Translations under genes and position numbers: made by a program
Notes under the pieces: model-generated
Told to the model about the DNA's origin: nothing
Databases searched by the model: none
What the model saw: only the letters and a program-made list of their open reading frames with translations
In this document: positions 49,719 through 56,825 of the stretch, in pieces
Position numbering within the stretch: the first letter of the stretch is position 1
Layout of the letters: each line of letters starts with the position of its first letter
Assembly: GCF_001542905.1 (NCBI RefSeq)
Contig: NZ_LOAJ01000001.1
Coordinates: forward strand, 1,860,001 to 1,924,000
Origin: Halorubrum aethiopicum
Lineage (GTDB): Archaea > Halobacteriota > Halobacteria > Halobacteriales > Haloferacaceae
Reading direction: 5' to 3'
Length of the DNA stretch: 64,000 nt

Positions 49719-50927
49719 TCAGAACTCTCCGTTGATGATATCCGCGACGTGCTGGCGGTCGAACAGTCGCTCGTCCGCCGGCGTGTCTCCGATCCCGTGC
49801 CACTCGCCGAACGCGTCCGGGTAGAACTGCTTGGCGGCCGCCTCAGTCTGGAACAGGTTGACGATCGGTCCCTGATACGACGAGCCGCCGCGGTAGAGGC
49901 GGCCGTTCCGGACGGCCGTCAGTTGGCCTCCGACGGGATCCTCCCGGAGCGCGTCCATCCGGTTCTCGAACTCCGCCGCCGAGACGTGTGAGAAGCCGTA
50001 CTGGAACAGGAGGGCGTCGGGGTCGACGTCCAGGAGCCGCTCGTAGTCCCACTGCGCGTAGCCGCCGTCGATGTGGTCGTCGAACGCGCCGTTCATCTCG
50101 AGGTCGCGGTACTGCTTGTGGTTGTTCCCGTCCTGTACCGGATACACGTAGAACGAACCGTCCTCGAAGTCGGAGTTCACCGAGACGAGCCCGATCGACG
50201 GGCGATCCTCGCTCTCGGGCAGCGACGCCCGGACCGTCGACAGCAGGTCGTCGTGGATCGCCGCGAACGCCTCGTACCGCTCGGGCTCGCCGAACGCGTC
50301 CGCGACGATCCCGAACGCCTCGTATAGCGAGTAATACCGGTAGTCGTGCCAGTCGTCGCCCCGTCGTCGGATGTAGTTCCCGAGGAACGGACCGACTCGG
50401 TCCGCTATCTCCTCCGTGTCGGACTCCGTCCACTCGTCGGCGATCACCCCGAGCCAGTTCGGGTCCAACAGGTGGAGGTCGCAGTCCACCTGATAGAGCG
50501 TCTCCTTGTCGAGCCCCTCGATCGCGGCCACGTCGTCGAACGAGACGTCGACACCCGGGAGCTGATCGTAGAACTCTGTCGGGACGGTAGCGGGGTCCCA
50601 GATCCCCCGGAGCCCGTCCGCTTGCCCGAGGGCGATCCCCATGTCCCCGTACGTGCTCAGGAACGCGAGCCAGGTCCCCGGCGGCGAGTCGAACGTGACC
50701 TCGCCCATCGGAGCCATCGTGACCGAGTACGACTCGTCCTCCGTCGGTTCCTCGCCTTCCGGAGTCTCATCCGTCGAGTCGGTTCCGTTCCCGTCGGACC
50801 CCGACGGAGCCGATTCGGCGTCGCCGCCGGTACAGCCGGCGAGCAGGCCGCCGAGGCCCACCGTACCGCCGTACTTCGCGAACGCTCTGCGAGTCGGTCC
50901 GCCGGGTGTGTCGTCGCCGTTGGGCAT
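49719..50927 (-). CDS. iron-siderophore type ABC substrate-binding lipoprotein (copy A)
   Basis: First gene of the operon, 402 residues. Tat signal TRRAFAKYGGT, lipobox LAGC and a Ser/Thr/Glu linker lead to the binding fold (ALGQADGLRGIWDPA, LYQVDCDLHLLDPNWLG, LDVDPDALLFQYGF). The C terminus is LFDRQHVADIINGEF. It is the most diverged of the three. The ATG at 50927 is preceded at about 21-30 bases by a GGTTTTACTT element, and two palindromic iron-box sites flank it. The message is thus probably leaderless and metal-regulated. Confidence 0.9.
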   Translation of the reverse strand: MPNGDDTPGGPTRRAFAKYGGTVGLGGLLAGCTGGDAESAPSGSDGNGTDSTDETPEGEEPTEDESYSVTMAPMGEVTFDSPPGTWLAFLSTYGDMGIALGQADGLRGIWDPATVPTEFYDQLPGVDVSFDDVAAIEGLDKETLYQVDCDLHLLDPNWLGVIADEWTESDTEEIADRVGPFLGNYIRRRGDDWHDYRYYSLYEAFGIVADAFGEPERYEAFAAIHDDLLSTVRASLPESEDRPSIGLVSVNSDFEDGSFYVYPVQDGNNHKQYRDLEMNGAFDDHIDGGYAQWDYERLLDVDPDALLFQYGFSHVSAAEFENRMDALREDPVGGQLTAVRNGRLYRGGSSYQGPIVNLFQTEAAAKQFYPDAFGEWHGIGDTPADERLFDRQHVADIINGEF

Positions 50928-50930
50928 GCT

Positions 50931-50946
50931 TTTAGGCTAGCCTAAA
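50931..50946. promoter_or_regulatory. iron box 1, SBP operon promoter
   Basis: Perfect palindrome TTTAGGCTAGCCTAAA, three bases before the ATG at 50927, between the TATA element and the expected transcript start. It resembles the half-sites of DtxR/IdeR operators, and a repressor here would block initiation. Confidence 0.8.
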
Positions 50947-50966
50947 GAAGTAAAACCGTTCCGATT

Positions 50967-50982
50967 TTTAGGCCTACCTAAA
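50967..50982. promoter_or_regulatory. iron box 2, SBP operon promoter
   Basis: TTTAGGCCTACCTAAA, upstream of the TATA element, with its left edge 36 bases from that of box 1, so the two sites bracket the promoter core. Confidence 0.8.
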
Positions 50983-51016: not shown

Positions 51017-51916
51017 CTACTCCTCGTGACGCGCGCGGATCGGCGTCACTCGCGGTCCGCGATCGGTGGCCACGACCTCGGCGTCGATCCTGAACACGTC
51101 CGCGAGCAACTCCTCGGTGACGACCTCCTCGGGCGGGCCACGGGCGCGGATCTCGCCGTCCTTGAGCGCCACCATGCGGTCCGCGAGCCGCGCCGCCTGC
51201 TCGATGTCGTGGAGGACGACGACCACCGTGACGTCGCTCTCGTCGCGCAGGGTCTCGATGATCTCCATCACCTCCATCTGGTGGTGGAGGTCGAGGAACG
51301 TCGTGGGCTCGTCGAGGAGGAGCACGTCGGTATCCTGTGCGAGCACCATCGCGATCCACGCCAGCTGTTTCTGCCCCCCGCTGAGGCTGCCGACCTCGCG
51401 GTCGCGCAGGTGGTCACAGCCGGCCAGTTCGACGGCGCGCTCGACGGCGCTCACGTCCTCCTCGGTCGTCCGCTCGAAAAAGCCACGGTGGGGATACCGT
51501 CCGTGATACACCAGGTCCTCGACCGTGATGCCGTTCGGCGAGGTGCTCTCCTGTGAGAGCAGCCCCAGCTTCCGGGCGAGCGCTTTCGTGTCCATCGAGT
51601 GGACGTCCCGCCCGTCGAGCACCACCGAGCCGGCCTCGGGCGCGAGCTGGTTCGCGAGCCCCTTCAACAGGGTGCTCTTGCCCGACCCGTTCGGCCCGAC
51701 CAAGGCGGTGACCGCGCCGGGCTCCGCGGCGATCGACTCGCCGTCGACCACCGGCTCCTCCCCGTTCGGGTACCCCAACACGAGTCCCTCGCCGCCGAGG
51801 TCGCTCGCGTCGCCGGTCCCACCGTCGCCGTCGTCGACGCGTCCGGCGGCAGCCGACTCGTCGCTCTCGTCGATCGATCCGTCCGTTCGCGTCGGTTCGA
51901 CTCCGTCCATCGACAT
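51017..51916 (-). CDS. iron-chelate ABC transporter ATP-binding protein
   Basis: ATPase of the FecE/BtuD group, 299 residues. An acidic N-terminal extension (1-40) precedes the nucleotide-binding domain. Walker A GPNGSGKST is at about 74-82, the signature LSGGQKQLAWIA, and Walker B DVLLLDEPTTFLDLHHQ. The switch His is in VVLHDIEQAA. It directly follows the permease gene (ATG three bases from its stop). Alternative start ATG at 51910. It energises uptake for the three binding lipoproteins. Confidence 0.93.
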   Translation of the reverse strand: MSMDGVEPTRTDGSIDESDESAAAGRVDDGDGGTGDASDLGGEGLVLGYPNGEEPVVDGESIAAEPGAVTALVGPNGSGKSTLLKGLANQLAPEAGSVVLDGRDVHSMDTKALARKLGLLSQESTSPNGITVEDLVYHGRYPHRGFFERTTEEDVSAVERAVELAGCDHLRDREVGSLSGGQKQLAWIAMVLAQDTDVLLLDEPTTFLDLHHQMEVMEIIETLRDESDVTVVVVLHDIEQAARLADRMVALKDGEIRARGPPEEVVTEELLADVFRIDAEVVATDRGPRVTPIRARHEE

Positions 51917-53131
51917 TCAGATCTCACCCATGTGCTGTTGTTTCCGCATCAGGTACAGGAAGTACGGGCCGCCGACCAGTCCCGTCACGATCCCGACCGG
52001 GACCTGCGCGTCCGCCCCGGTGATCACGCTCATGCCGAGGCGCGCGCCCACGTCGGCACCGACCATCAGCGCCGGGCCGACGAAGAGACAGCCGACGATC
52101 AGCCGCTTGTAGTCGCTGCCGACGAGGTTGCGGACCATGTGGGGGACGATGAGGCCCACGAAGCCGACGATCCCCGCCACCGCGATGCTGGCGGCCGCCG
52201 CGAGCACCGCGACGCCCGACAGCGCGAACCGTACCTTCTCGATGGACATCCCGAGCGCCTTCGCGGTCCCCTCGCCGAGCAGCAGGAGGTTCAGCTGTCG
52301 CGATCCCGCGACGGAGAGCGTCACCGCGACGAGCGTCCACGGGAGCGCCAGCCGGACCTGCTCCCAGTCGGTTCCGGTGAGCGAGCCCGTGGTCCAGGCG
52401 ATCGCCGACTGGACGACGCCGATGTCGTCGGCGAAGAAGAACAGCCCCGTCTGGAGGCTGTTGAAGACGGTCCCGACGATCACCCCCGCGAGCACGAGCC
52501 GCACGGGACTGGTCCCGTTCTTCCACGCGATCGCGTATACGATCAGGAAGGCGATAGACCCACCGAGCGCCGCGATCAGCGGCAGGAACGCCGAGAGGCT
52601 CCCGAACACGACGAGCGTGAGCAGGATGGTCAGTCCCGCGCCCGAGGAGACCCCGAGGATGAACGGGCTCGCGAGCTCGTTCCGCGTCACCGCCTGGAAG
52701 ATCGCCCCGGAGACCGCGAGGTTCGCGCCGACGAGGACGCCGACGAGCACCCGCGGCAGCCGGATGTTCCAGACGATGAGCGTCTCGCGGGCCAGCTCGG
52801 GGAGCTCTCCCCGGAACCCGGTCAGCATCCGCATCAGCTCCTCGCCGACGAGGAAGTTGAGCAGCCACCGCGAATCGAGCAGGACGGCGGGGTCGAGGAC
52901 GGCGCGCCACGCCTGGCCGACCGTCATCGAGTAGGCCCCGAAGCTCACCTGGACGAGCCCGGCAACGACGATCACCGCGAGACTGGAGAGCGCGACGGCG
53001 ACGAGCCTCGCGTCGAGGAGCCACCCGATCGGGCTCCGGTCGGTCGTCCGCCTCCCCGAGGTCTCGCCGTCGACCCGCGATCCGCCGTCGACCGAGGATC
53101 CGCCCCCGACCGTCGACCCCTCGCCGCTCAT
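51917..53131 (-). CDS. iron-chelate ABC transporter permease (FecCD family)
   Basis: Membrane subunit of 404 residues with about ten transmembrane helices. Family signatures are IRLPRVLVGVLVGANLAVSGA, ELASPFILGVSSGAGL and IVGFVGLIVPHMVRNLVG, the last being the coupling-helix region that contacts the ATPase. A disordered Gly/Ser N terminus of 35 residues is typical of haloarchaea. The start shares its first base with the stop of the upstream flavoprotein gene. A single permease gene implies a homodimer. Confidence 0.94.
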   Translation of the reverse strand: MSGEGSTVGGGSSVDGGSRVDGETSGRRTTDRSPIGWLLDARLVAVALSSLAVIVVAGLVQVSFGAYSMTVGQAWRAVLDPAVLLDSRWLLNFLVGEELMRMLTGFRGELPELARETLIVWNIRLPRVLVGVLVGANLAVSGAIFQAVTRNELASPFILGVSSGAGLTILLTLVVFGSLSAFLPLIAALGGSIAFLIVYAIAWKNGTSPVRLVLAGVIVGTVFNSLQTGLFFFADDIGVVQSAIAWTTGSLTGTDWEQVRLALPWTLVAVTLSVAGSRQLNLLLLGEGTAKALGMSIEKVRFALSGVAVLAAAASIAVAGIVGFVGLIVPHMVRNLVGSDYKRLIVGCLFVGPALMVGADVGARLGMSVITGADAQVPVGIVTGLVGGPYFLYLMRKQQHMGEI

Positions 53132-54186
53132 CAGGTCTCCCCCTCGGCGGGTTCGGGAGCGGTCTCCCGGCTCTCCTCGTCGACCTCGCCGTCTTCGTCG
53201 ACCTCGCCGCCGATCTTCCCGGTCGCGTACGCGGCGATCGCGTCGTCGTCCATCGCCTCGAGCAGCGCCTCGGTCCCGTGCGCGTCGACGACGGCGGCCG
53301 GGTCCAGGCGCTCGGCCACGGCGCGCTCGCCGGCCGCCGCCCGCGACTCGATCTCGCCGGCGTCGACGTACGCCGACAGGGCGTCGTCGATCGCCGCCTC
53401 CCGGACCCGCGCGTACCGCTCGGAGTCCGGATCGACCGGCGCGTCGGCGTGGTGCGCGTCGAACCACTCGACCCAGCGGTCGCGATCCGTCCACTCGTCG
53501 TCGAGTTCGGTCTCGCGGCGGAGCCAGTCGACCCCTTCAGCGGCCGCGGGCCACCACCCGTCGGCGATCCGGGCGTCGGCGACGACCCGTTTACCGACGC
53601 GGGCTCCGCGCGCGGCGGCCGTGATCGCCTGTCGGTCGGCCTCGGACGGGGTGGCGACGTAGAGCCCGTCTATCGGCGTCGTTCCGTCGCGGTCGGCGTA
53701 CCCGCGGTCGAAGCGCTCGGTCGTCTCCCCGCCGTGTTCGTGGATCTCGAACATCGCGTCGTCGCCGAGCGGCCGCAGGTACTCGCCGCCGTACCGCGTG
53801 GCCGCGACGACGCGCCGGGTCGTGATCGGGTCGCCCTCCTGGGGCGTGACGCGGAAGCCGCCGGAGGTGTCGTCGTCGCCCTCCGTGCCCCGGTCGGCGA
53901 CCGAGTCGCTTCCCTCCGCTCGCCGTTCGACCGACTCGACGAGGTCCGCGATCACGGAACAGCCCGCCTCACGGAGGTGGTCGCGTGCGAGGTCGGCGAA
54001 CGTCCCGACGTCGATCCCCGCCGGGAAGCCGAGGTAGTTCTCCAGGTGGGCACACCGGGCGAGCGAGGACCGGCCGCGGTCGAACACCGTCACGTCGAGT
54101 CCCCCGCGAGCGAGGAAGACGCCGGCGGACGAGCCGGCCGGCCCGCCGCCCACCACGACGACGTCGCGGTCGAACGGGGCGGTCAC
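53131..54186 (-). CDS. thioredoxin-reductase-like FAD protein with a C-terminal helical extension
   Basis: A 351-residue paralogue of the protein at 46385-47146. FAD loop VVVVGGGPAGSSAGVFLARGG, CAHLENYLGFPAGIDVG in the place of NAHLDNFPGFPVG, and GLYVATPSEADRQAITAA. No CxxC is present. About 120 extra residues form a helical, acidic C-terminal region (EWTDRDRWVEWFDAHHADAP). The start is GTG at 54186, overlapping the stop of a 46-codon gene (GTGA). Encoded in the same operon as the permease and ATPase, so a role in iron handling is likely (inference). Confidence 0.82.
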   Translation of the reverse strand: MTAPFDRDVVVVGGGPAGSSAGVFLARGGLDVTVFDRGRSSLARCAHLENYLGFPAGIDVGTFADLARDHLREAGCSVIADLVESVERRAEGSDSVADRGTEGDDDTSGGFRVTPQEGDPITTRRVVAATRYGGEYLRPLGDDAMFEIHEHGGETTERFDRGYADRDGTTPIDGLYVATPSEADRQAITAAARGARVGKRVVADARIADGWWPAAAEGVDWLRRETELDDEWTDRDRWVEWFDAHHADAPVDPDSERYARVREAAIDDALSAYVDAGEIESRAAAGERAVAERLDPAAVVDAHGTEALLEAMDDDAIAAYATGKIGGEVDEDGEVDEESRETAPEPAEGET

Positions 54187-54323
54187 TCCTCGCCCCCGTT
54201 CACGGTCCTCGCGAGTCCCTCGCGGTCGAACGGCTCCTCGCCGGCGCGGCCTCTGGGGATTCCGACTTCGACGACCCCGCCGTCGTGCCGGGTCGTCTCC
54301 TCCTCGTCCGTCCGTCTCATCAT
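54183..54323 (-). CDS. 46-residue protein at the head of the iron operon
   Basis: Small gene too short for ordinary gene calls. Start ATG at 54323 (or 54320), stop overlapping the GTG of the flavoprotein. The promoter is tight: iron box 4 bases upstream, TATA GATTTAATCC next, then a second box. The protein is MMRRTDEEETTRHDGGVVEV onward, with an end EEPFDREGLARTVNG that resembles the last residues of the binding lipoproteins (ERLFDRQHVADIINGEF). It may be a remnant of a fourth such gene that kept its promoter, or a true small protein. Confidence 0.6.
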   Translation of the reverse strand: MMRRTDEEETTRHDGGVVEVGIPRGRAGEEPFDREGLARTVNGGEE

Positions 54324-54327
54324 GTGT

Positions 54328-54343
54328 TTTAGGCTTCCCTAAA
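54328..54343. promoter_or_regulatory. iron box 1, permease operon promoter
   Basis: TTTAGGCTTCCCTAAA, four bases before the small gene's ATG, on the transcript-start side of the TATA element GCGATTTAATCC. Confidence 0.8.
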
Positions 54344-54363: not shown

Positions 54364-54379
54364 CTTAGGTCACCCTAAA
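54364..54379. promoter_or_regulatory. iron box 2, permease operon promoter
   Basis: CTTAGGTCACCCTAAA, with one mismatch to the palindrome, upstream of the TATA element and exactly 36 bases from box 1, as in the SBP operon. Confidence 0.75.
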
Positions 54380-54765: not shown

Positions 54766-54960
54766 TCGATCTCCATCGAAACACCCGCACCACTAGCCAT
54801 GGAATTCTATCGGAAAATTCGGGTATTCGTCGGTGAAACGATCCTCGGTGATCGGTTCCATCGCGGTCGTCTCCCTTTCAGACGATTGACCGGTTTCACC
54901 GGGGCGAACTCGACGAAAATCGAGTTTTAGGCCGTACGAAAAGTGTTTGGATGTTGATAA
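54766..54960. other. AT-rich intergenic stretch before dpsA
   Basis: Between the dispersed element and the dpsA TATA box, with lower GC than the rest of the window. It holds one degenerate iron-box-like site (54926-54941). I see no gene. Confidence 0.5.
54926..54941. promoter_or_regulatory. degenerate iron-box-like site upstream of dpsA
   Basis: TTTAGGCCGTACGAAA has one intact TTTAGG half-site and a poor second half. It lies about 20 bases upstream of the dpsA TATA element. Only suggestive. Confidence 0.4.
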
Positions 54961-54995: not shown

Positions 54996-55541
54996 ATGAG
55001 CACGCAGAAAGAGACGCGACAGCGCGCGGGCACAGTCGAGGAGAACGCCCTCAGACTCGAGACGGAGAAGGCCGAACAGATCATCGAGGCGCTGAACTCG
55101 GATCTCGCGGACGCGTACGTCCTCTATCACCAGCTCCACAAGCACCACTGGAACGTCGAGGGCGCGGAGTTCCTCGACATCCACGTGTTCTTACAGGAGG
55201 TGTACGAGGACGTCGAGGCGGCCGCCGACGAACTGGCCGAGCGGCTCCAGGCGCTCGGCGGCGTCCCGCACGCCAGCATGACGACGCTCGCGGAGAACGC
55301 GACCGTCGAGGCGGAGGACGAGGACGTCTACGACGTCCGCACCTCCCTCGCGAACGACCTCGAGATGATGGGCGACATCATCGAGAGCTACCGCCAGCAC
55401 ATCGAACTCGCGGACGGGCTCGGCGACTACGCCACGAGCGAGATGCTCCGCGAACAGCTGGAGACGATCGAGGAACACGCCCACCACATCGAACACTACC
55501 TCGAGGACGACACCCTCGTCACCGACTCCGCGACGCACTAA
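54996..55541 (+). CDS. dpsA: Dps-type ferritin DpsA
   Basis: Mini-ferritin of 181 residues that oxidises and stores iron in a dodecameric cage and protects DNA. The four-helix bundle is seen with the ferroxidase region HKHHWNVEGAEFLDIHVFLQE (about 48-68) and its partner in VEAAADELAERLQALGG. The C-terminal helix has EMLREQLETIEEHAHHIEHYL, rich in His/Glu. An N-terminal 30-residue tail is typical of haloarchaeal DpsA. Its place beside the iron-uptake operons and the metal regulator fits an iron-stress role. Confidence 0.95.
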   Translation: MSTQKETRQRAGTVEENALRLETEKAEQIIEALNSDLADAYVLYHQLHKHHWNVEGAEFLDIHVFLQEVYEDVEAAADELAERLQALGGVPHASMTTLAENATVEAEDEDVYDVRTSLANDLEMMGDIIESYRQHIELADGLGDYATSEMLREQLETIEEHAHHIEHYLEDDTLVTDSATH

Positions 55542-56021: not shown

Positions 56022-56197
56022 CGACGGATATCGACGGGGTCGTCCACCGCGATCCACCCGTCCGTGTTGTCGGATTCGATGAACACCGATCGACCGGGAC
56101 CGCCTTCACAGACCGTCACCTCCGGCCTCCGGGCCGACTCGGGTTCGCGATCCGATCCGTGGCGGGGCTCGCTTCGGGACTGCGCTCCTGTTGGCAT
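56018..56197 (-). CDS. 59-residue protein, possibly DUF7331-like
   Basis: Small gene from ATG 56197 to a stop that overlaps the amphi-Trp start (ATGA). The protein is mostly charged, with a hydrophobic-ended core SVFIESDNTDGWIAVDDPVD near the C terminus, in the style of small haloarchaeal proteins of the DUF7331 type (unsure). An iron box is 9 bases upstream, and a TATA-like CCTTTTTTGTTTT lies 22-34 bases upstream, so it looks transcribed and leaderless. Function unknown. Confidence 0.62.
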   Translation of the reverse strand: MPTGAQSRSEPRHGSDREPESARRPEVTVCEGGPGRSVFIESDNTDGWIAVDDPVDIRR

Positions 56198-56205
56198 CGA
56201 CTCTC

Positions 56206-56221
56206 TTTAGGCATACCTAAA
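56206..56221. promoter_or_regulatory. iron box, amphi-Trp operon promoter
   Basis: TTTAGGCATACCTAAA, nine bases before the small gene's ATG. Only one box is seen here. The TATA element overlaps its distal edge. Confidence 0.75.
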
Positions 56222-56280: not shown

Positions 56281-56694
56281 TCACTCCGGCGACGGCGAGG
56301 GAGACGGCACCTCGGAGGGGACGTTCGCGTCGCGGCCGTCGTCGTCGACGAGGAGCGTGGCGAGGCGGTCGGCGACCTTGGGGCTCAACAACCCGGCCAT
56401 CTCCATCGCCTCGCGCTCGTGTGCCTCGAGATCGAGGATGTCCCGGAAGAACCACGAGAGCGCGACGTACGTCTCGTGGAGGTCGCTCGCGCGTTCGCGG
56501 CCGGCCTCGGTCAGCGTCGCGCCGCGGTACGGCTCGCGGTCGACGAGGCCGTCCGCCTCGAGCCGCTGGAGCATCTCCGTCGCCGCGGCCGGGGACCGGT
56601 CGACCAGCTCCGCGACGCGCCCGGAGGACACCGGCGGCGACGAGCGGTGTTCCGCGATGTACAACGCGAGGAGGTACCGCGCGGTCCGCGTCAC
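56281..56694 (-). CDS. DtxR-family metal-dependent transcriptional regulator
   Basis: A 137-residue regulator. The winged helix (VSSGRVAELVDRSPAAATEMLQRLEADGLVD) and the dimerisation helices (TEAGRERASDLHETYVALSWFFRDIL, HEREAMEMAGLLSPKVADRL) match the DtxR/IdeR/MntR group. The usual metal-ligand motif with Cys or Glu followed by Glu-His is replaced by MEMAGLL. The C-terminal SH3 domain is absent. The start is a GTG at 56694, and a 20-25 codon frame upstream ends on it (GTGA). It is the natural candidate to bind the iron boxes, including its own. Confidence 0.82.
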   Translation of the reverse strand: MTRTARYLLALYIAEHRSSPPVSSGRVAELVDRSPAAATEMLQRLEADGLVDREPYRGATLTEAGRERASDLHETYVALSWFFRDILDLEAHEREAMEMAGLLSPKVADRLATLLVDDDGRDANVPSEVPSPSPSPE

Positions 56695-56768
56695 GGCCGC
56701 TCGCCCCCTCGCGAGCGCCGAATCGGGCGATCCGCGTCGACCTCGAGCGGCATCGAGTCCCTCGGCAC
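56695..56768 (-). CDS. possible leader peptide of the DtxR-family gene
   Basis: A reading frame from GTG 56768 or ATG 56753 (MPLEVDADRPIRRSRGGERP) ends with a TGA at 56693-56691, overlapping the regulator's GTG at 56694. Codon use looks coding. The promoter position predicts that the transcript starts near 56768, so it may be translated first and coupled to the regulator. Alternatively, a frameshift splits one longer N terminus. Confidence 0.4.
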
Positions 56769-56772
56769 ACGA

Positions 56773-56788
56773 TTTAGGCCAACCTAAA
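56773..56788. promoter_or_regulatory. iron box 1, DtxR-family gene promoter
   Basis: TTTAGGCCAACCTAAA, just upstream of the expected transcript start, beside an AT-rich CCGTTTTGTGTG element. Confidence 0.8.
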
Positions 56789-56809: not shown

Positions 56810-56825
56810 TTTAGGCTGACCGAAA
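56810..56825. promoter_or_regulatory. iron box 2, DtxR-family gene promoter
   Basis: TTTAGGCTGACCGAAA, one half-site degenerate, 37 bases from box 1. The pair suggests autoregulation with the same architecture as the transport operons. Confidence 0.7.

What the first reader, a model, noticed from the sequence alone, without database searches (positions are those of the whole stretch)
50931..50982. Two iron boxes at a fixed 36-bp step bracketing a leaderless promoter
TTTAGG-N4-CCTAAA sites occur 3 bases before the ATG and again upstream of the TATA element. The same layout with the same 36-bp step is in the permease operon (54328 and 54364), and a 37-bp step in the DtxR-family gene promoter (56773 and 56810). 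A fixed distance over about 3.5 helical turns suggests cooperative binding of two dimers enclosing the pre-initiation complex.
Basis: partly seen in the sequence, partly recalled or inferred. Interest (0 to 1): 0.65.

Follow-up and report, generated by a model that had tools for sequence, protein, structure and literature searches.

The report
Paired iron-repressor sites flanking archaeal promoters
In salt-loving archaea, iron-uptake genes carry two copies of a DtxR-type iron-repressor site clamped on either side of the core promoter at a nearly fixed distance (usually 36 bp); the layout is real and recurs across the whole class, but the distance seems to be set by the size of the promoter rather than by the two repressors touching.

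Summary
Boxes TTTAGG-N4-CCTAAA lie at 50931/50967 (step 36), 54328/54364 (36, one mismatch) and 56773/56810 (37, one mismatch). A fourth pair elsewhere in this Halorubrum genome has step 36. Across Halobacteria, 361 of 391 genomes carry such pairs. In a 126-genome sample the step peaks at 36 (190 of 435 pairs), with 34-35 common, 37 rare and almost nothing from 38 to 85. A step-26 class sits at another promoter. The boxes do bracket BRE/TATA, and the start codon follows a few bases later. However, distal-to-BRE and BRE-to-proximal distances vary almost independently, and single boxes keep the proximal position without a partner. The step therefore mainly reflects core-promoter geometry, not dimer-dimer contact. 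Each box is a single-dimer half of the bacterial DtxR/IdeR site (second site in 0 of 168). The window's DtxR-like protein lacks the canonical metal ligands and close relatives occur in only 43 of 126 genomes, so it is not the general binder; a ligand-bearing TroR/IdeR-like paralogue is present in all 126. Best explanation: metal-dependent dual-operator repression. Binding, metal response and start sites were not tested.

The parts
49719..50927 (-). gene for iron/siderophore-type ABC substrate-binding lipoprotein (402 aa)
   Evidence: ORF; Pfam PF01497 Peripla_BP_2, 47.3 bits against cut-off 27.5
50931..50946 (-). proximal box TTTAGGCTAGCCTAAA, spanning about -19 to -4 from the ATG
50950..50955 (-). 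TATA element (TTTTAC), about -28 to -23 from the ATG
   Evidence: sequence; matches the class-wide linker consensus
50958..50963 (-). BRE (CGGAAC)
   Evidence: sequence; CGRAA is the strongest part of the linker consensus
50967..50982 (-). distal box TTTAGGTAGGCCTAAA, directly upstream of BRE
51017..51916 (-). ABC transporter ATPase, FecE-like
51917..53131 (-). FecCD-family permease
   Evidence: PF01032 3.6e-83
53131..54186 (-). FAD/NAD(P)-dependent oxidoreductase (GTG start)
54183..54323 (-). 46-codon ORF at the box-adjacent ATG, overlapping the oxidoreductase gene by GTGA
   Evidence: and sequence
54328..54343 (-). proximal box
54364..54379 (-). distal box (one mismatch), step 36
56281..56694 (-). 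DtxR-family regulator (137 aa, GTG start) lacking the canonical metal-ligand residues
56691..56768 (-). 25-codon ORF at a box-adjacent GTG, overlapping the regulator gene by GTGA; kept in five relatives
56773..56788 (-). proximal box
56810..56825 (-). distal box (one mismatch), step 37 here, 36 in relatives
56206..56221 (-). single box (proximal type, BRE distance y=15) before a 59-codon ORF starting at 56197 and an Amphi-Trp-like gene (weak match, below cut-off)

Best explanation
The paired boxes are two single-dimer operators for a metal-loaded DtxR/IdeR-type repressor, placed at fixed positions on either side of the BRE-TATA core of iron-uptake promoters whose start codon lies about 28 nt after TATA (leaderless). 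The proximal box fills the stretch between TATA and the start codon, so a bound dimer would block RNA polymerase loading and melting. The distal box abuts BRE, so a bound dimer would hinder TFB and tighten repression. The 34-37 bp step (mode 36) exists mainly because each box is fixed relative to BRE/TATA. The most likely general binder is the TroR/IdeR-like paralogue present in every genome sampled; the window's own DtxR-like protein is at most an accessory regulator. Shown here: the layout, its conservation, the anchoring to BRE, the single-dimer site form, and the distribution of paralogues. Inferred: binding, metal dependence, repression, leaderlessness and which paralogue acts.
For: Class-wide recurrence: 361/391 genomes with pairs at steps 24-54 and 259/391 with step exactly 36 (63 of 86 genera); the reversed-pattern control is near zero. 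In 126 genomes the counts are 34: 55, 36: 190, 37: 16, 24-33: 90, 38-54: 12, 55-85: 14, with 35: 72 by subtraction (sums). In oriented loci the order is distal box, CGRAA BRE, TATA, proximal box, then usually 3-6 nt to the start. Decomposition: step 34 is mainly x=2, 35 is x=3 or y=17, 36 is x=4,y=18 (43 of 49), 37 is mostly y=19; weak correlation r=-0.14. Single boxes at y=18 with no partner. Proximal box nearly invariant, distal degenerate. Targets are mostly Peripla_BP_2 lipoproteins. 14-bp TTAGGNNNNCCTAA is reported to bind one IdeR dimer (PMC8464063); no second overlapping site in 168 cores. TroR-like paralogue in 126/126 genomes, including two that have a step-36 pair but no short-type paralogue at 1e-15; it keeps IdeR/MntR-type ligand residues.
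Against: No binding, expression or start-site data. The negative x-y correlation, though small and biased by limiting the steps to 34-38, leaves room for some direct spacing preference. In some genomes step 34 dominates, so the geometry is not universal. From memory, not checked here: a Haloferax volcanii study places the TroR motif about 100 nt upstream of start codons, which does not obviously match these positions. Other DtxR paralogues could bind the same box.
Confidence: 0.6

Rival explanations
1. Cooperative clamp: two dimers bound 36 bp apart contact each other across TBP-bent DNA and enclose or trap the pre-initiation complex, and this contact fixes the spacing.
For: Sharp mode at 36 and near absence of 38-54; the secondary class at 26 is about one helical turn shorter; the distal box is weaker than the proximal one, as expected if it is filled cooperatively; slight negative x-y correlation.
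Against: Steps 34 and 35 together make 127 of 435 pairs; x and y vary almost independently; the proximal position is kept without a distal box; a 36-bp step puts dimers on roughly opposite faces, awkward for contact without strong bending.
Confidence: 0.2
2. Dual-mode control: the proximal box represses, while the distal box, just upstream of BRE, serves for activation (for example by another DtxR paralogue recruiting TFB) under another metal state.
For: Activators are known directly upstream of BRE in archaea (CopR, PMC7830388); five DtxR-family proteins occur in this genome; the distal box is looser than the proximal.
Against: Both boxes share one consensus; the genes are mainly uptake genes, expected to be repressed by iron (inference); no functional data.
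Confidence: 0.12
3. Inheritance: the layout was copied with duplicated binding-protein genes and has no functional constraint on spacing.
For: Most targets are paralogous Peripla_BP_2 genes.
Against: Also found before DUF5059 genes and DtxR-family genes; linker sequence between BRE and TATA varies while positions stay.
Confidence: 0.05

Closest known systems
Bacterial DtxR/IdeR iron box
   Same: Core TTAGGNNNNCCTAA is identical to the 14-bp single-dimer IdeR site (PMC8464063); iron-uptake targets; DtxR-family genes in the genome.
   Different: Bacterial sites are usually a 19-bp palindrome binding two dimers on opposite faces (PMC8464063), the two dimer sites being 5 bp apart; here the second overlapping site is absent (0/168) and a second single-dimer site lies 34-37 bp away.
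Archaeoglobus MDR1 (metal-dependent DtxR-family repressor; Bell et al. 1999, cited in PMC5569661; details from memory)
   Same: DtxR-family repressor acting at the core promoter of a metal-transport operon.
   Different: From memory, its operators lie downstream of TATA and block polymerase; here there is an additional box upstream of BRE.
Haloarchaeal Idr/SirR/TroR iron network (Halobacterium, Haloferax; cited in PMC11349517)
   Same: Same class of organisms, regulators and target genes; this window is very probably part of that kind of network.
   Different: I could not read the primary papers (not held), so I cannot say whether the paired layout is already described there or in Leyn and Rodionov 2015.

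Membership tests
DtxR/IdeR-type operator | 14-bp palindrome TTAGGNNNNCCTAA (single-dimer site) | tested here: met
DtxR/IdeR-type operator | 19-bp form with a second overlapping dimer site | tested here: not met
   0 of 168 distinct perfect cores has a 5-bp shifted second site
DtxR/IdeR-type operator | metal-dependent binding of a DtxR-family protein | not testable with these tools
   needs gel shift or ChIP
DtxR family (window protein 56281-56694) | DtxR-type DNA-binding domain | tested here: met
   PF01325 47.5 bits, cut-off 26
DtxR family (window protein 56281-56694) | metal-binding/dimerisation domain with conserved ligands | tested here: not met
   PF02742 23.5 bits, below cut-off 27; the positions that carry metal-ligand residues in the TroR-like paralogue and in DtxR are replaced
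TroR/IdeR-like (paralogue at C1:1582891) | both DtxR domains, SH3/FeoA-like tail and ligand residues | tested here: met
   near full-length match to IdeR, 3e-31, with ligand positions kept or substituted as in MntR; ligand roles from established DtxR/MntR knowledge
Leaderless promoter | transcription start at or next to the start codon | not testable with these tools
   only the TATA-start distance (about 28 nt) supports it

The most novel reading that the evidence does not exclude
A class-wide operator sandwich: haloarchaea split the bacterial two-dimer iron box into two single-dimer sites that flank BRE-TATA, so that the metal-loaded repressor closes over (and perhaps traps) TBP/TFB on leaderless promoters, giving a switch with the general factors held in place.
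Probability: 0.15. Interest if true: 0.6.

Novelty: new variant of a known kind. Interest (0 to 1): 0.42.

Why it matters
It gives a precise, testable promoter grammar for iron control in a whole class of archaea (two single-dimer sites at fixed places relative to BRE, TATA and start codon), allows regulon prediction from sequence, and points to a different paralogue than the neighbouring gene as the likely iron sensor. It also shows how a bacterial-type repressor is fitted to a eukaryote-like core promoter.

Tried and rejected
The key primary papers were not held. A sigma-70 promoter scan gave nothing, as expected for an archaeon. Idea that the window's DtxR-like protein is the general regulator: rejected, because close relatives (E <= 1e-25) occur in only 43 of 126 genomes and Halorubrum genomes such as G010, G026, G064, G102 and G110 have step-36 pairs without one. 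The first orthologue search returned only 20 loci, mostly Halorubrum. My first start-codon call for the regulator gene (GTG at 56770) and the oxidoreductase 5' end used were wrong and were corrected. Counts by step use the loose pattern TTNGGNNNNCCNAA; step 35 was obtained by subtraction. An earlier count said 46 of 126 genomes have a close relative of the window regulator; the recount is 43.

Full report
Observation. Allowing three mismatches there are nine matches in the window against a mean of 1.15 in shuffles. In the whole genome only four close pairs exist, with steps 36, 36, 37 and 36; the fourth precedes another Peripla_BP_2 lipoprotein. About ten further boxes are single.

Class-wide spacing. 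Pairs of TTNGGNNNNCCNAA at steps 24-54 occur in 361 of 391 Halobacteria genomes and 80 of 86 genera, while the reversed control pattern gives almost none. Step exactly 36 occurs in 259 of 391 genomes and 63 of 86 genera. In the common 126-genome sample the counts are: steps 24-33, 90; 34, 55; 36, 190; 37, 16; 38-54, 12; 55-85, 14. The total for 24-54 is 435, which leaves 72 for step 35. Among the 24-33 pairs listed, about half have step 26, and these are mostly one promoter type in which BRE lies inside the distal box. Thus 36 is a true mode inside a window of 34-37 with a sharp upper edge. Within Halorubrum the binding-protein promoter and the permease-side promoter keep step 36 in most genomes. 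Named plasmid loci of Haloarcula, Halostagnicola and Haloferax show steps 36, 35/36 and 34 before or near similar binding-protein genes.

Anatomy. In loci where a downstream start codon could be found, the order is distal box, CGRAA (BRE), TATA, proximal box, then usually 3-6 nt to ATG/GTG; the 22-nt linker consensus shows BRE and TATA clearly. Measuring from the BRE cytosine, x (distal core to BRE) is 4 and y (BRE to proximal core) is 18 in 43 of 49 scored step-36 pairs. Step 34 is mainly x=2, step 35 either x=3 or y=17, step 37 mainly y=19. Weighted by class-wide counts the correlation of x and y is -0.14 (bootstrap -0.23 to -0.03), and part of that follows from limiting the steps to 34-38. 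The proximal box is nearly invariant at the two positions left open in the pattern (103 and 102 of about 106), the distal box is not (70 and 81 of 105). Single boxes in the fetched loci lie mostly at the proximal place, y=18 or 15. These facts indicate that each box is placed relative to the core promoter. They do not show cooperation and do not exclude it.

What the box is. The core TTAGGNNNNCCTAA is the 14-bp sequence that a study of Saccharopolyspora IdeR found to bind one dimer, as opposed to the 19-bp two-dimer site (PMC8464063). None of 168 distinct perfect haloarchaeal cores has the overlapping second site. So each box should hold one dimer, and the pair separates two dimers by about 36 bp instead of 5 (inference).

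Which protein. The genome has five DtxR-family genes over the Pfam cut-off that align as such. The one in the window is the only one whose promoter has these boxes, but its canonical ligand positions are replaced, its metal-domain match is below cut-off, and close relatives exist in only 43 of 126 genomes, so Halorubrum genomes without it still keep pairs. A TroR/IdeR-like paralogue (C1:1582891) is found in 126 of 126 genomes, keeps ligand positions, and has counterparts in G001 and G007, which have a step-36 pair but no short-type paralogue at 1e-15. It is therefore the best candidate for the general binder. This is co-occurrence, not proof.

Targets. Genes behind pairs are mostly Peripla_BP_2 iron/siderophore-type lipoproteins, with DUF5059 proteins and DtxR-family genes as others. 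In the window the 54328 promoter opens a 46-codon ORF that overlaps the oxidoreductase gene by GTGA, followed by a FecCD permease and a FecE-like ATPase. The regulator promoter opens a 25-codon ORF overlapping the regulator gene by GTGA; the ORF keeps 25 or 30 codons in five relatives that also have the paired boxes at step 36, while relatives with a single proximal box start the regulator directly at an ATG 4-5 nt after the box core.

Mechanism and verdict. Most likely a metal-loaded DtxR/IdeR-type dimer on the proximal box blocks polymerase between TATA and start, and a second dimer on the distal box abuts BRE and strengthens shut-off; the spacing follows from the promoter core. Archaeal repressors are known to act either by occluding TBP/TFB or by blocking polymerase recruitment, MDR1 being cited among them (PMC5569661). 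Whether the paired layout has been described in the haloarchaeal iron papers could not be checked, as they were not held.

Noticed in passing
window 56691-56768 and 54183-54323 (minus strand): Box-adjacent short ORFs (25 and 46 codons) each overlap the next gene's GTG start by GTGA, suggesting translational coupling; the 25-codon one is kept at 25 or 30 codons in five relatives.
   Followed up: partly
window 56206-56221: Single box at the proximal place but with a 15-nt BRE distance, before a 59-codon ORF and an Amphi-Trp-like gene; the same arrangement recurs in many Halorubrum loci.
   Followed up: partly
window 54926-54941: Weak box (two mismatches) about 55 bp upstream of dpsA (54996-55541), upstream of its TATA-like stretch; could mark iron-dependent activation of storage.
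   Followed up: no
L024 1501-1540 and similar loci: Step-26 pairs at one promoter type in many haloarchaea, with BRE inside the distal box; in L024 a dpsA-like gene lies nearby on the other strand.
   Followed up: partly
L091 around 1694, L095 around 1464: Two contig-3 DtxR paralogues have a different palindrome (ATTAGAC...CTAAA type) near their starts, possibly a separate metal regulon.
   Followed up: no
L005 (genome C1:594000-608500): Five perfect single boxes within about 10 kb, mostly at proximal position, marking another probable iron-related cluster.
   Followed up: no
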